Positions 9,328-39,523 of a DNA stretch of 40,585 bases are shown piece after piece (position 1 is the stretch's first letter; each line of letters opens with the position of its first letter). The stretch spans positions 1-40,585 of the forward strand of contig NZ_RRYE01000006.1 of assembly GCF_004010105.1 (NCBI RefSeq), in the 5' to 3' direction. The notes under the pieces are model-generated. The model saw only the letters and a list, made by a program, of their open reading frames with translations. It did not search any database and was not told the origin of the DNA. This DNA is from Microbacterium sp. CPCC 204701 (GTDB taxonomy: Bacteria; Actinomycetota; Actinomycetes; Actinomycetales; Microbacteriaceae). The position numbers were made by a program, and so were the translations under genes.

Positions 9328-10196
9328 TGGGTCTCTCACGCTCCGGAGGCGCCGCGGTTCGCGGGGCGCTCGGCGACGGCGCCTCGACGCACGCGTGGGG
9401 CGGCCCGATCTTCGAGGTCAGGGATGTCGCGATCGGCTTCGGTGATCGAGACGACGTCCTCGCGGGCGTCGACCTCGCGATAGAGAAGGGCGAGTTCCTC
9501 ACTCTCCTCGGCCCGAGCGGGTGCGGCAAGACCACGATCCTGAACCTCGCCGCCGGCCTCCTCCAGCCGCGATCCGGGCAGGTGCGCTTCGCCGGCAAGG
9601 AGATCGTCAGTGTGAACACCAGCGTCGGCTACATGACGCAGGACGACACCCTGCTGCCCTGGCAGACGGTGAGCACCAACGTCGGGCTGCCGTTGCGGAT
9701 GCGCGGCGTGACGAAAGCCGAGACGGCCGAGCGCGTCGCACGCTACCTCGACATGCTGGATCTCTCGCACGCGTCGAACCTGCTGCCGGGTCAGCTCAGC
9801 GGTGGCATGCGTCGGAGGGCCCTTCTCGCGCGCAGCATGATCTACGATCCGCAGCTGCTTCTCATGGACGAGCCGTTCGCGGCCCTCGACGCGCAGATGC
9901 GGCATCAGATGCACTCGGAGCTGCGTGCGACGGTGAACCGGCTCGGCCAGACCGTGCTCTTCGTGACGCACGACATCTCCGAAGCGGCGAAGCTGTCCGA
10001 CCGCGTGCTGATCGTCGGAGGCGGTCCCCCGGGAGGAATCGTCAAGGAGTACACGCTGCCGTTCGGCCGCGAGAGGGATCTGGACAGGCTTCGTTTCACC
10101 GACGAGTATGCGCGCGTCGAGCGGGAGCTGAACGACGGACTGCTCGAGGCGCGATCGAGCCGCTCGGCTGCAGCGACGACGGAAGGGATGAGCTGA
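9327..10196 (+). CDS. ABC transporter ATP-binding protein, nitrate/sulfonate/taurine class
   Basis: A 289-residue ATPase. Walker A is GPSGCGKTT, the signature is LSGGMRRRALLARS (the family usually has LSGGMQQR), Walker B is LLLMDEPFAALD and the H-loop is VTHDISEAAKLSDR. There is a roughly 28-residue N-terminal extension before the first strand, so a start downstream is possible, but TGATG coupling to the binding-protein gene favours 9327. It would energise import together with the permease that follows. Confidence 0.92.
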   Translation: MGLSRSGGAAVRGALGDGASTHAWGGPIFEVRDVAIGFGDRDDVLAGVDLAIEKGEFLTLLGPSGCGKTTILNLAAGLLQPRSGQVRFAGKEIVSVNTSVGYMTQDDTLLPWQTVSTNVGLPLRMRGVTKAETAERVARYLDMLDLSHASNLLPGQLSGGMRRRALLARSMIYDPQLLLMDEPFAALDAQMRHQMHSELRATVNRLGQTVLFVTHDISEAAKLSDRVLIVGGGPPGGIVKEYTLPFGRERDLDRLRFTDEYARVERELNDGLLEARSSRSAAATTEGMS

Positions 10197-11044
10197 TGAG
10201 CGCGAGCATCGTCGACAGCGCGCGGCCCGGGGTGCCCTCGACCGTCACCCGCGCGATCGCGACACGGCGCAAGGCCCGCAGGCACAAAGCGCGGATCATC
10301 CTGATCCAGTGCGCGGTCGTCCTCGTGTTCCTCGCGGTGTGGCAGTTCGTCTCCGGCCGCTTCATTCCCGATCTGCTCATCAGCAGCCCATCGCAGGTGC
10401 TTCCCCTGTTCTGGACCTGGCTGACCGACGGGACGCTCGCGTTCAACGCCCTGGTGACCTTCCAGAACGCCTTCCTCGGCCTGCTCGTCGGCGGCGTGCT
10501 CGGGATCATCGTGGGCATCATCCTCGGCCAGTCCACGGTGCTGGCCGAGATCTTCGAGCCGTTCATCACTGCGCTCTACACCATGCCCAAGCACGCCCTG
10601 ATTCCTCTGTTCATCATGTGGGTGGGAATCGGCGCAATGCTCGGGATCCTGACCGCCGCCGTCATCGTGTTCTTCCTGGTGTTCTTCAACACCTTCTTCG
10701 GCATCAAGGACGTCAGCCAGTCCCTTGTCAACGGGGTGCGGGTGATGGGCGGTTCGCGCATGGACGTCATGTTCCGAGTGCGCCTGCCGTCCGCGCTCAT
10801 CTGGGTGGTGGCGGCGCTCAAGCTGGCGGTGCCGCAGGCCGTGGTCGGCGTCGTCGTCGCCGAGATGCTCGCCGGCGACAGTGGGCTGGGATACCTCGTC
10901 TCGCGCAACGCCGGGATGTTCAACAGTGCGGGAACGTTCGCCGCGCTGCTCGCACTGCTGATCGCTGGGTTTCTCATCGATCGTCTGATGAGCTGGGTCA
11001 CGCGCAAACCGCTGCAATGGAAGAACGCCAACGGCACCTCATGA
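10196..11044 (+). CDS. ABC transporter permease, SsuC/TauC-like
   Basis: A 282-residue BPD-type permease with about six hydrophobic segments. The EAA-like coupling loop is recognisable in QSLVNGVRVMGGSRMDVMFRVRLP, which touches the ATPase in this family. The ATG overlaps the ATPase stop (TGATG), and its own stop overlaps the next ATG (ATGA). With 8260 and 9327 it completes a high-affinity importer. Coupling to the flavoprotein gene suggests that the transported compound or its close derivative is the substrate of that enzyme. Confidence 0.9.
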   Translation: MSASIVDSARPGVPSTVTRAIATRRKARRHKARIILIQCAVVLVFLAVWQFVSGRFIPDLLISSPSQVLPLFWTWLTDGTLAFNALVTFQNAFLGLLVGGVLGIIVGIILGQSTVLAEIFEPFITALYTMPKHALIPLFIMWVGIGAMLGILTAAVIVFFLVFFNTFFGIKDVSQSLVNGVRVMGGSRMDVMFRVRLPSALIWVVAALKLAVPQAVVGVVVAEMLAGDSGLGYLVSRNAGMFNSAGTFAALLALLIAGFLIDRLMSWVTRKPLQWKNANGTS

Positions 11045-34840: not shown

Positions 34841-35857
34841 ATGGCTCTTCGCTTCGGTCTCGCTCTCATGAACGACTTCCCTCCCGGCACGCGCGTCGCC
34901 GAAAGGGTGCCGCAGCTGCGCGAACAGGCCCGCGAGGCCTCGCGCAACGGCATCTCGTCGCTGTGGGTGCTGCAGCACTACCTCGGCACGATGCCGACGC
35001 TGCAGCCGCTGCCTCTGCTGGCGGCGCTGGCAGCAGACAGCGGGGACCTCGAACTCGGCACCAACATGTTCATCCTGCCGCTGCGTCATCCCGTCGGCGT
35101 GGCCGAGGAGTTCTCCACGCTCGATCACCTGAGCGGCGGCCGCGCGGTCGCCGGTTTCGGCATGGGCTATCGCGAGAACGAGTTCGCCGCTTTCGGAGTG
35201 CCGATGGACGAGCGCATCGCCCGTTACACGGAGGCGATCCACATCGTCCGGGCGCTGTGGTCGGGGCAGCGCGTGACCTTCGAAGGCCGCCACTTCCACA
35301 TCGACGATGAGAAGATCAGCCTCGTCCCCGTCCAGGAGGGCGGCCCGCGCATCCTGATCGGCGCCGGTGCGCACAAGGCGGGCATCGAGCGGGCGGCCGC
35401 GCTCGGGGACGCCTGGATCGTGCCTCCCCACGTCACCGGCGATCGCCTCACGCGCGCGATCCGGCTGTACTCGCAGGCGCGCTCGGAGGCCGCCCCGGGG
35501 GAGTCCTCGAGATTTGTCGTGCGGCGTGAGCTCGTGCTGCACTCAGACCGCGAGCGGGCGCTCGCCGAGGGCACCGCCGCCCGCTCCGAGCTCACCGCCG
35601 AGTACGGAAGGTACAACGCCCCCGACCGGACGGCAGACTATGCGCAGCTCGCCGATCCGGCCGCGGCCGAGCAGAAGGCGAGAGAGGCGTACATCTTCAC
35701 CGACCCCGCAGGAGCCGTCGAGGAGTTCCGTCGGCTCGAGTCGGCCGGGGTCACCGATGTCGTGCTGCGCATGCAGTGGTTCGGTTTGGCCCACGAACGG
35801 ATGCTGCAGACCCTGGCGCTCTTCCGCGACCAGGTGCTGCCGCAGCTGGCCGGCTAG
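34841..35857 (+). CDS. LLM-class flavin-dependent oxidoreductase (second copy)
   Basis: A 338-residue luciferase-like barrel with GTNMFILPLRHPVGVAEEFSTLDHLS, GGRAVAGFGMGYRENEFAAFG and PRILIGAGAHKAGIERAA. It is clearly diverged from the first copy at 14437 (different N-terminus and C-terminal third) and so is not a recent duplication. FMN monooxygenase or F420-dependent chemistry are both possible. AAAGGA lies eight bases before the ATG. The TAG stop shares the CTAG tetramer with the stop of the convergent ferredoxin gene. Confidence 0.88.
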   Translation: MALRFGLALMNDFPPGTRVAERVPQLREQAREASRNGISSLWVLQHYLGTMPTLQPLPLLAALAADSGDLELGTNMFILPLRHPVGVAEEFSTLDHLSGGRAVAGFGMGYRENEFAAFGVPMDERIARYTEAIHIVRALWSGQRVTFEGRHFHIDDEKISLVPVQEGGPRILIGAGAHKAGIERAAALGDAWIVPPHVTGDRLTRAIRLYSQARSEAAPGESSRFVVRRELVLHSDRERALAEGTAARSELTAEYGRYNAPDRTADYAQLADPAAAEQKAREAYIFTDPAGAVEEFRRLESAGVTDVVLRMQWFGLAHERMLQTLALFRDQVLPQLAG

Positions 35858-36051
35858 TCCTCCTCGATGCGGATCGCCCGCTCGGGGCAGTTGCCCTGCG
35901 CCTGACGGGCGAGGTTCCGCTCGGCATCCGTCTGCGGCTGCATGACGACCCACGCGAGGCCGTCCGCGTCGTCGATGTCGAAGATCCTGTCGGCCACCAT
36001 GAGGCAGACGCCGTGACCCTGACAGACGTTCTTGTCGACGGTGACTCGCAT
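35854..36051 (-). CDS. Small ferredoxin, [3Fe-4S]/His-variant type, P450 partner class
   Basis: A 65-residue ferredoxin with Cys10, His13, Cys16 and Cys55 (CQGHGVC and CPERAI). The histidine takes the place of the second cysteine, as in ferredoxins that serve actinobacterial P450s. GGAGG precedes the ATG in minus orientation. It is divergent from the P450 gene, across 116 bases that hold the second ACTATGATAAT site. A second, unrelated [2Fe-2S] ferredoxin is encoded downstream of the P450, so two electron carriers are available. Confidence 0.9.
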   Translation of the reverse strand: MRVTVDKNVCQGHGVCLMVADRIFDIDDADGLAWVVMQPQTDAERNLARQAQGNCPERAIRIEED

Positions 36052-37445: not shown

Positions 37446-37916
37446 ATGGTCGGATCGACCGCCCCGGCACCTCTGCGGGGAATGCGGTGGGGGATCAAGG
37501 CGAGCTTCCTCGCGTATCTGGCGCACCTGCCCGACACGGCGATGTCCGCGACGGACGGCGCTGTGGACTCCCCGGAGGGCTTCGTCTTCCCTCTCGAGGA
37601 CGCGAGCGACTTCGACGCCCGGACGGGCGCGGGCGAGCTGCGATTCCGCGGCGATGTGAGGCTGCGGGGGCACGGCGGGATGCTGTCGGTGCGCTTCGCG
37701 AATCCCCGCGTGACGGTCGACGACGTCGGACCGTGGCTGTCTGTCGAGGATGCAGCGGGCGCTCGACGGCGAGTCGCGGCGCTCGGCACGCCGAGGTCCG
37801 CCGGCGGCGGCGGGATCGAGATCCCTGCCGCGCTCACGGCGGAGGCCGTGGCGTGCTTCAACGATGTGTACCCCGAGGGGACCGGGCTCGACCCGGTCGT
37901 CATCCGGGGTGTGTGA
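37446..37916 (+). CDS. HtaA-like domain protein without signal peptide
   Basis: A 156-residue protein recognised by MRWGIKASFLAYLAHL near the N-terminus and ELRFRGDVRLRGHGGMLSVR in the middle, which match the heme-binding HtaA domain of corynebacterial heme-uptake proteins. Tyr24 and His76 are candidate heme residues. Unlike the usual members it has no signal peptide or membrane anchor, so it should be cytoplasmic. The ATG at 37446 is six bases after the P450 stop (a GTG at 37443 is possible). Inside a P450 operon it may hold or deliver heme, or play a role in electron transfer (inference). Confidence 0.7.
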   Translation: MVGSTAPAPLRGMRWGIKASFLAYLAHLPDTAMSATDGAVDSPEGFVFPLEDASDFDARTGAGELRFRGDVRLRGHGGMLSVRFANPRVTVDDVGPWLSVEDAAGARRRVAALGTPRSAGGGGIEIPAALTAEAVACFNDVYPEGTGLDPVVIRGV

Positions 37917-37941: not shown

Positions 37942-38265
37942 ATGTCCGCACAGGTGACCTACACCTCGTCGACCGGCGAACAAGTGACGTACGAGGGCGC
38001 AGCAGGCGAGTCGGTGATGCAGATCGCCATGCACCACGGCCTGCGCGGCATCATCGCCGAATGCGGGGGATCGATGTCGTGCTCGACATGCCATGTGTTC
38101 GTCGACGAGGACGACCTTGAGCTGCTGCCGCCGGTCTCGGAACTGGAAGACGAGATGCTCGACACCACGGCCGTGGACCGTGAGCCGAACTCTCGACTTT
38201 CCTGCCAGCTCGTGCTCGCTGACGGCTGCTGGATCCACGTGACCACACCAGAGAGCCAGATGTGA
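37942..38265 (+). CDS. [2Fe-2S] ferredoxin, putidaredoxin/adrenodoxin type
   Basis: A 107-residue ferredoxin with cluster cysteines 41, 47, 50 and 88 (C-x5-C-x2-C-x37-C; CGGSMSCSTC and LSCQL). The acidic helix DEDDLELLPPVSELEDEMLD is the usual docking surface for P450 and reductase. It carries electrons from the next gene's reductase to the P450. It starts 25 bases after the HtaA-like gene and ends one base before the reductase ATG. Confidence 0.94.
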   Translation: MSAQVTYTSSTGEQVTYEGAAGESVMQIAMHHGLRGIIAECGGSMSCSTCHVFVDEDDLELLPPVSELEDEMLDTTAVDREPNSRLSCQLVLADGCWIHVTTPESQM

Positions 38266-38266
38266 C

Positions 38267-39523
38267 ATGGCGAACGGAATCGTCGTGGTGGGCGCCTCTC
38301 AGGCCGGCGTGCAGCTCGCTGCGAGTCTGCGGGAGGGCGGGTTCCGCCACCCGATCACTCTCATCGATGGCTCCACGCACGAGCCGTACCAGCGCCCGCC
38401 GCTGTCGAAGGACTTCCTCGCCGGCCACGTGGATGCGGAGGGGCTTCGGTTCCGCGATCGCGAGTACTACGAGGAGAACGGCATCGCGCTCGCGCTCGGC
38501 TCGCCGGCGGTCCACGTCGAGCGTGACCACGAGGGTGGCGTCGTCGTCACCGCGGACGGGTCGCGGCATCCTTACGACCGGCTCGTGCTCGCAACCGGCG
38601 CGGCCCCGCGCCGGCTCGACATTCCCGGTGCCGACTTGGACGGTGTGCTGGCGCTGCGCGATGCCGACGACGCCGCGCGGCTCAAGGCCTCCTTCGCGAC
38701 GACCGAGAACGTGGTCGTCGTCGGCGGTGGCTTCATCGGGCTGGAGGTGGCGGCGAGCGCACTCAAGCAGGGCAAGAAGGTCACCGTGCTCGAGGCGGCG
38801 CCTCGCATCATCGGGCGTGCCGTCGGAGAGGAGACGAGCAGCTGGTTCCTCGAGGCGCATCGCGCGCGCGGAATGCGGATCGACACCGGGGTCTCCCTCG
38901 CCCGCCTGGTGGGCGACGACGACGGCCACGTCATCGGCGTCGAACTCGCCGACGGTGCAGTGGTGCGCGCGGATGTCGTGATCGTGGGGATCGGCGTCGT
39001 GCCGCGCACCGAGCTCGCCGAGCAGCTGGGCCTCGAGATCGCGAACGGCATCGTGGTGGACGAGCACTCGGTGGCATCGGATGGCAGCACCCTCGCAGTC
39101 GGCGACGTCGCCAACCTTCCGAATCCCTATGGGCGATGCGCCGAGGCGATGTCACGCATCCGCCTCGAAAGCGTGAACAATGCGATCGAGCAGGCGCGGT
39201 TCGCCGCGGGCACCCTGCTGGGCGATCCGCGCACGTACGCCTCCGTCCCGTGGTTCTGGTCGAACCAAGGGGACATCAGGCTCCAGATGGCGGGCCTCAA
39301 CGTCGGCTACGACCGCGTCGTGATCCGGGGCGACGTGCCGGCCGAGAAGTTCTCGGTGCTCTACTTCCGCGACGACATGCTGCTCGGGGCCGACTGCGTC
39401 AACAATCCCGTCGACTTCATGGCTGTGAGGCAGGCCCTCGCGCGCGACAGGCATCTGGTTCCCGAGGATGCGCTTCGGCCTGAGCCCCTGAAGACGCTCT
39501 TCGTCGACGGTGCGACCACCTGA
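38267..39523 (+). CDS. NAD(P)H-dependent ferredoxin reductase (putidaredoxin reductase type)
   Basis: A 418-residue FAD enzyme. IVVVGASQAGVQLAASL is the FAD site, YQRPPLSKDFL the flavin loop, VVVVGGGFIGLEVAASA the NAD(P)H Rossmann motif, and VGDVANLPNPYG the second FAD motif. The C-terminal VPWFWSNQGDIRLQMAGL matches putidaredoxin and rhodocoxin reductases. With the ferredoxin and P450 it forms a complete class I three-component system. Its last 14 bases overlap the start of the following permease gene. Confidence 0.94.
   Translation: MANGIVVVGASQAGVQLAASLREGGFRHPITLIDGSTHEPYQRPPLSKDFLAGHVDAEGLRFRDREYYEENGIALALGSPAVHVERDHEGGVVVTADGSRHPYDRLVLATGAAPRRLDIPGADLDGVLALRDADDAARLKASFATTENVVVVGGGFIGLEVAASALKQGKKVTVLEAAPRIIGRAVGEETSSWFLEAHRARGMRIDTGVSLARLVGDDDGHVIGVELADGAVVRADVVIVGIGVVPRTELAEQLGLEIANGIVVDEHSVASDGSTLAVGDVANLPNPYGRCAEAMSRIRLESVNNAIEQARFAAGTLLGDPRTYASVPWFWSNQGDIRLQMAGLNVGYDRVVIRGDVPAEKFSVLYFRDDMLLGADCVNNPVDFMAVRQALARDRHLVPEDALRPEPLKTLFVDGATT

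What the first reader, a model, noticed from the sequence alone, without database searches (positions are those of the whole stretch)
37446..37916. Cytoplasmic HtaA-like heme-binding domain embedded in a P450 operon
HtaA domains are known from secreted or membrane-anchored heme uptake proteins of corynebacteria. Here a single domain lacking any signal peptide sits six bases after a P450 stop and before its ferredoxin. The GIKASFLAYL and RGHGGMLSVRFANP segments carry a Tyr and a His that could bind heme. A dedicated heme donor or stabiliser for the P450, or an unrecognised electron-transfer subunit, would be new.
Basis: partly seen in the sequence, partly recalled or inferred. Interest (0 to 1): 0.65.

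Follow-up and report, generated by a model that had tools for sequence, protein, structure and literature searches.

The report
Cytosolic heme-binding partner of P450 operons
A small heme-binding domain, best known from proteins that capture heme outside the cell, is encoded here inside the cell beside a cytochrome P450, and similar pairs recur in many actinobacteria, which suggests an undescribed heme-handling helper for these enzymes.

Summary
The 156-aa protein at 37446-37916 is a true HtaA (CR) domain: PF04213 E 2.4e-21, predicted fold Z 19 to solved HtaA domains. It has no signal peptide and lies 6 nt after a P450 stop and 25 nt before a [2Fe-2S] ferredoxin gene. The axial Tyr (Y24), helper His (H76) and propionate Ser/Tyr (S20, Y142) of solved CR-heme complexes are all present.

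It belongs to a clade of cytosolic single-domain HtaA proteins whose heme-site residues are almost invariant. Linkage to P450s recurs: a P450 lies within 1.5 kb at 13 of 78 cytosolic loci but 0 of 83 secreted-type loci, one mis-sorted, and at 20 of 47 further loci. In 38 P450-neighbour loci the partners form 15 P450 groups in several gene orders. My searches of an open-access library found no paper on this pairing.

Best reading: a heme donor, reservoir or maintenance protein for catabolic P450s, working like yeast Dap1 but with another fold. Heme binding and any effect on P450s are untested. Other branches of the clade sit beside no P450, so the role may be wider. Electron transfer is unlikely.

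The parts
37446..37916 (+). Cytosolic single-domain HtaA/CR protein, 156 aa (start ATG 37446; GTG 37443 possible); predicted heme site S20, Y24, H76, Y142
   Evidence: PF04213 E 2.4e-21; AlphaFold2 model pLDDT 89, Z 19 to 8smu and 6jsa; conserved residues
36156..37439 (+). Cytochrome P450, 427 aa, with normal Cys-loop FGVGSHRCAG; best PDB matches include a CYP125-type protein, P450cin and P450cam
   Evidence: PF00067 E 1.4e-15; phmmer against PDB; motif
37942..38265 (+). [2Fe-2S] ferredoxin, 107 aa
   Evidence: PF00111 E 1.2e-10
38267..39523 (+). Ferredoxin reductase (FAD), 418 aa
   Evidence: PF07992 E 1e-60 and PF14759 E 5.2e-26
35854..36051 (-). Small single-cluster (Fer4_13 type) ferredoxin, divergent from the P450
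   Evidence: PF13370 E 5.1e-13

Best explanation
The gene encodes a cytosolic CR-type heme-binding protein, an extra component of this class I P450 operon that handles the P450's heme. Proposed mechanism: Y24, hydrogen-bonded to H76, holds ferric heme in a five-coordinate site, with S20 and Y142 on a propionate. The protein exchanges this heme with the neighbouring P450, supplying heme to newly made apo-P450 or keeping a protected heme pool so that the P450 stays loaded during catabolic induction. Shown: domain identity, predicted fold, conserved heme-site residues, cytosolic form by sequence, and recurrent P450 linkage. Inferred: heme binding, contact with the P450, direction of transfer, and effect on activity.
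For: Profile and fold. Heme-site conservation in 79 loci: Y24 79, Y142 79, H76 77 (Tyr in the other 2), S20 74 plus 4 Thr and 1 Gly. CR domains bind hemin by this Tyr, with a helper His (Tyr in ChtA) and a conserved Ser/Tyr on a propionate, KD from 850 pM to 22 nM (PMC12494546, passages). Linkage: P450 within 1.5 kb at 13 of 78 cytosolic versus 0 of 83 secreted-type loci (the 83 are 69 distinct places and one, L115, is really cytosolic); 9 of 25 genes versus 0.35 expected from P450 density; 20 of 47 further loci. In 38 P450-neighbour loci the partners form 15 groups at 40% identity in several orders, which points to the shared cofactor rather than one substrate. HtaA overlaps a P450, ferredoxin or reductase gene by 1-4 nt in seven loci. 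The window's genome has two PF04213 matches, both cytosolic, so no HtaA-type uptake was found. Dietzia HtaA takes up heme from P450 in vitro (PMC8027190, passages). Fission yeast Dap1 needs its heme-ligating Tyr for P450 function (PMC9449707, first of two parts read).
Against: Most P450s of this genome have no such neighbour: G000 has 9 P450 matches and two HtaA genes. Of the 78 cytosolic loci 65 had no P450 within 1.5 kb. Whole branches have none, for example Arthrobacter (SARP-type regulator, alpha-amylase family), Prauserella (Penicillinase_R, M48) and Blastococcus (MDMPI, HAD). HtaA is the least conserved protein of the P450 operon against Gulosibacter: 60% versus 73-79% for the P450, reductase and small ferredoxin. 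A nanomolar Tyr site could strip heme from a P450 rather than give it. No binding or activity data exist.
Confidence: 0.45

Rival explanations
1. Heme salvage or buffer: the protein takes heme from damaged or uncoupled P450 and keeps it harmless, so transfer runs from P450 to HtaA.
For: Dietzia HtaA acquires heme from P450, catalase and lignin peroxidase but not significantly from cytochrome c (PMC8027190 passages); CR domains have nanomolar affinity (PMC12494546 passages).
Against: It does not explain why only a minority of P450s carry it; no heme-degrading enzyme was among the 30 neighbour proteins given to Pfam, a small sample.
Confidence: 0.15
2. A pathway protein that binds a substrate or intermediate, or an enzyme that uses the Tyr-His pair, with no heme involved.
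For: The wider family occurs in catabolic clusters with Rieske oxygenases, acyl-CoA dehydrogenases and aminotransferase genes without an adjacent P450.
Against: The heme-site positions are almost always kept, the propionate Ser/Tyr among them; partner P450s are too diverse for one substrate (15 groups in 38 loci).
Confidence: 0.15
3. A P450-binding stabiliser whose action does not need its heme, as reported for mammalian PGRMC1.
For: PGRMC1 stabilises P450s without heme (PMC8591507 abstract); overlapping genes suggest matched synthesis.
Against: It does not explain the near-perfect conservation of the heme ligands.
Confidence: 0.12
4. An extra electron-transfer subunit of the P450 system.
For: It lies between P450 and ferredoxin genes in the window and in L206, L214 and L220.
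Against: Ferredoxins and a reductase are already present in the window; other linked loci have HtaA before the P450, after the reductase or divergent; Tyr-ligated ferric heme is expected to be hard to reduce (recalled).
Confidence: 0.04
5. A leftover of a heme-uptake protein, or chance placement in catabolic islands.
For: The family's characterised members take up heme (PMC12494546 passages).
Against: Cytosolic clade separate from the secreted ones (SH-aLRT 98); linkage about 25 times expectation; no secreted HtaA among this genome's PF04213 matches.
Confidence: 0.04

Closest known systems
HtaA/ChtA/HtaB CR domains of Corynebacterium (PF04213)
   Same: Same profile and predicted fold; same axial Tyr, helper His and propionate Ser/Tyr positions
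   Different: Characterised ones are secreted or anchored and serve heme uptake; this one is cytosolic, single-domain and in a P450 operon
Dap1/PGRMC1 (MAPR family) of eukaryotes
   Same: Tyr-ligated heme protein that supports P450s (PMC9449707 first part, PMC8591507 abstract)
   Different: MAPR proteins have a cytochrome b5-like domain and Dap1 is membrane bound; the window protein is predicted to have the CR fold, so it would be a functional analogue, not a relative
Bacterial HtpA/TANGO2 homologs (PMC10470608, start of abstract in a listing)
   Same: Reported heme-trafficking proteins of bacteria
   Different: Linked to cytochrome c synthesis; not compared here by sequence or fold

Membership tests
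HtaA/CR heme-binding domain (PF04213) | Profile match above the curated cut-off | tested here: met
   77.4 bits against 24
HtaA/CR heme-binding domain (PF04213) | CR fold | tested here: met
   AlphaFold2 pLDDT 89.1; Z 19.2 to 8smu, 19.0 to 6jsa
HtaA/CR heme-binding domain (PF04213) | Axial Tyr, helper His, propionate Ser and Tyr | tested here: met
   S20, Y24, H76, Y142 by alignment
HtaA/CR heme-binding domain (PF04213) | Binds heme | not testable with these tools
   Needs purified protein
HtaA-type heme-uptake hemophore | Signal peptide, anchor or several CR domains | tested here: not met
   Single domain with no hydrophobic segment
HtaA-type heme-uptake hemophore | Heme ABC transporter (HmuTUV) beside it | not tested
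   No HmuTUV search was run
MAPR/Dap1-PGRMC1 | Cytochrome b5-like fold | tested here: inconclusive
   The model matches the CR fold; no b5-like chain is among the 50 rows shown, which does not exclude one
P450 accessory protein | Physical or functional effect on a P450 | not testable with these tools
   Only gene linkage shown

The most novel reading that the evidence does not exclude
Cytosolic CR-domain proteins are dedicated heme-delivery or heme-maintenance components of bacterial P450 systems, a recurring extra gene beside P450, ferredoxin and reductase genes and a bacterial analogue of Dap1. The hemophore fold was recruited, or retained, for heme trafficking inside the cell.
Probability: 0.4. 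Interest if true: 0.85.

Novelty: new variant of a known kind. Interest (0 to 1): 0.68.

Why it matters
I know of no dedicated heme chaperone for bacterial P450s (recalled); in one search for heme chaperone, P450, bacterial and heme insertion, none of the 15 titles and abstract starts listed, of 48 papers matched, describes one. A small soluble protein of a solved fold family, encoded beside diverse P450s in soil bacteria that can be grown in the laboratory, makes the question of P450 heme loading directly testable. If it acts, it could raise holo-P450 yield in heterologous hosts.

Tried and rejected
Electron transfer and leftover uptake were considered and set low for the reasons given under rivals. 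A first conservation count on sequences picked by the motif itself was discarded as circular and redone by profile. The genome-contig scan with A3 returned many Arthrobacter, Prauserella and Blastococcus relatives without a P450 neighbour; these are kept in the counts and lower the linkage figure. Literature searches: HtaA with P450 (7 papers listed), 'HtaA domain' (8 listed), 'HtaA domain-containing protein' with cytochrome P450 (0), HtaA with Rhodococcus, degradation and gene cluster (1) and PF04213 (0). Of these papers I read passages of PMC8027190, PMC10060970 and PMC10924467; the others I saw only in the listings. The library holds open-licence papers only.

Weak points. The 83 control loci are 69 distinct places (loci sharing a 60-mer counted once) and one of them, L115, is the cytosolic gene of L144. 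The control stretches are 1.5 kb flanks only. A5 was built from HtaA proteins lying near P450s (rows L095, L099, L205 and L203 beyond 1.5 kb), so the 47 loci are not an even sample; I fetched hits down to E 2.6e-28 and left weaker ones, some with short frames, the five genomes already known and the long-frame hit in G1478. In one search I left out five genomes with cytosolic HtaA (G915, G950, G1212, G1174, G526); four had been looked at and had no adjacent P450, and G526 was not looked at; a cytosolic-looking hit in G567 was not looked at either. The tree left out L144 and L199, was a quick search and has long branches, so the placing of deep rows is unsure.

Full report
Observation. The 156-aa ORF at 37446-37916 matches PF04213 HtaA at E 2.4e-21. 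It starts 6 nt after the P450 stop and ends 25 nt before a [2Fe-2S] ferredoxin gene, which is followed by a ferredoxin reductase; a small Fer4_13 ferredoxin lies upstream on the other strand. The best PDB matches by phmmer are HtaA and ChtA domains, and a profile of 36 relatives finds only HtaA/HtaB/ChtA chains at E up to 0.01 (names). An AlphaFold2 model from 36 sequences has pLDDT 89.1 and pTM 0.83. Foldseek's 16 best rows are all HtaA/ChtA/HtaB chains. VIA-align gives Z 19.2 to 8smu and 19.0 to 6jsa; the first chain outside the corynebacterial heme- and hemoglobin-binding proteins has Z 6.1.

Heme site. In CR-hemin structures a Tyr in helix 1 binds iron, a His (Tyr in ChtA) hydrogen-bonds to it, and a Ser and a second Tyr bind a propionate (PMC12494546, passages). 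These align with Y24, H76, S20 and Y142 here. In 79 loci taken by profile, Y24 and Y142 are kept in 79 of 79, W15 in 79, H76 in 77 (Tyr in L110 and L200) and S20 in 74, plus 4 Thr and 1 Gly. For the 50 loci the search pattern itself fixed most of residues 12-21 (W15 and S/T20 among them), but not Y24, H76 or Y142.

Cytosolic clade. Of these 79 loci, 78 show no hydrophobic segment and a tail of at most 27 residues; the exception is L199, a secreted Patulibacter protein. In a tree of 105 domains (77 cytosolic, 28 control; L144 and L199 left out) the cytosolic rows form one side of a branch (SH-aLRT 98) with a single control row inside, L115, which is the same gene as cytosolic L144. The window's genome has two PF04213 matches. 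Both are cytosolic; the second lies divergent from a Fer4-reductase-P450 operon and beside a cupin gene.

Linkage to P450. With 1.5 kb flanks, 13 of 78 cytosolic loci and 0 of 83 secreted or multidomain loci have a P450; the 83 are 69 distinct places, one of them L115. Ferredoxin reductase matches are 7 of 78 against 0 of 83, one of the seven (L112) not convincingly of the P450 type. In 22 genomes with 25 cytosolic HtaA genes, P450 density predicts 0.35 genes within 1.5 kb; 9 are seen by the distances and, for G1298, (Poisson-binomial P 2e-11). I fetched 54 loci; 6 had been seen before and 1 looked secreted. Of the other 47, 20 have a P450 within 1.5 kb, all 20 on the same strand and 15 within 200 nt.

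Diversity. In 38 loci chosen because they lie near a P450 (four of them beyond 1.5 kb), the nearest P450s form 15 groups at 40% identity and the HtaA proteins 22 groups at 45%. In an earlier set of 16 loci most partner P450 pairs were 23-35% identical. Gene orders include P450-HtaA-Fdx-FdR (window, L206, L214, L220), P450-HtaA-FdR (L153), P450-HtaA (L101, L198, L257), HtaA-P450 (L152, L175, L231, L241 and others), P450-Fdx-HtaA (L200, L222), P450-Fdx-FdR-HtaA (L095, L205) and HtaA divergent from the ferredoxin-reductase genes (L057, L106, L227). HtaA and its neighbour overlap by 4 nt in L101, L152, L145/L175, L095 and L205 and by 1 nt in L198 and L200. Gulosibacter chungangensis keeps much of the window's cluster (P450 79%, reductase 73%, small ferredoxin 76%, HtaA 60%), but no [2Fe-2S] ferredoxin lies in the 84 nt between HtaA and reductase.

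Results against a P450-only role. 65 of the 78 cytosolic loci had no P450 within 1.5 kb. Plasmid relatives end a Rieske oxygenase-reductase operon in two Rhodococcus, with a P450 about 2.8 kb on, abut an acyl-CoA dehydrogenase in Mycolicibacterium, and in Citricoccus one follows a TRAP transporter. In Paenarthrobacter and Arthrobacter alkylamine clusters the P450 is 4.3-4.5 kb away. Whole branches have fixed, P450-free surroundings. P450 is still the neighbour family found at most loci, 21 of 79 within four genes on either side.

Mechanism. A Tyr-ligated heme domain with diverse P450 partners points to the shared cofactor. Dietzia HtaA takes heme from P450 (PMC8027190 passages), so exchange is chemically possible; direction is open. 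The closest functional parallel is Dap1, whose heme-ligating Tyr is required for P450 function in fission yeast (PMC9449707, first of two parts), while PGRMC1 acts without heme (PMC8591507 abstract). The fold differs, so this is analogy, not membership.

Novelty. The domain is known; its cytosolic, P450-linked form was not found in the searches, which cover open-licence papers only. I file it as a new variant of a known kind. A dedicated P450 heme chaperone would be more, but is unproven.

Noticed in passing
L155, L158, L161, L163 and other Arthrobacter loci, about 10001-10480: A conserved Arthrobacter branch of the cytosolic HtaA clade sits near a SARP-type (BTAD) regulator and an alpha-amylase family enzyme, with no P450; its role is unexplained.
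   Followed up: partly
L107:6904-9474 and L108:6886-9465: In two Rhodococcus plasmids HtaA is the last gene of a Rieske oxygenase-PDR/VanB reductase operon, so the association may extend to non-heme oxygenases.
   Followed up: no
L203:8962-18070 (P. aurescens TC1 pTC2): Cytosolic HtaA lies near the ipuC gamma-glutamylisopropylamide synthetase and P450-ferredoxin-reductase genes of a known atrazine degrader (degrader recalled).
   Followed up: no
window 8389-36051: The window looks like a catabolic island: TRAP and ABC transporter, citrate-lyase-like, MaoC, ADP-forming acyl-CoA synthetase and luciferase-like genes (names by eye, not run against Pfam); the pathway is not identified. Best PDB matches of the P450 include P450cin and P450cam.
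   Followed up: no
L109:12588 onwards, minus strand: P450-like ORFs in an unannotated gap of the Citricoccus plasmid, in two pieces, perhaps a broken gene.
   Followed up: no
L057:9374-10326: The second cytosolic HtaA gene of this genome overlaps a small cupin gene by 4 nt and is divergent from a Fer4-reductase-P450 operon.
   Followed up: partly
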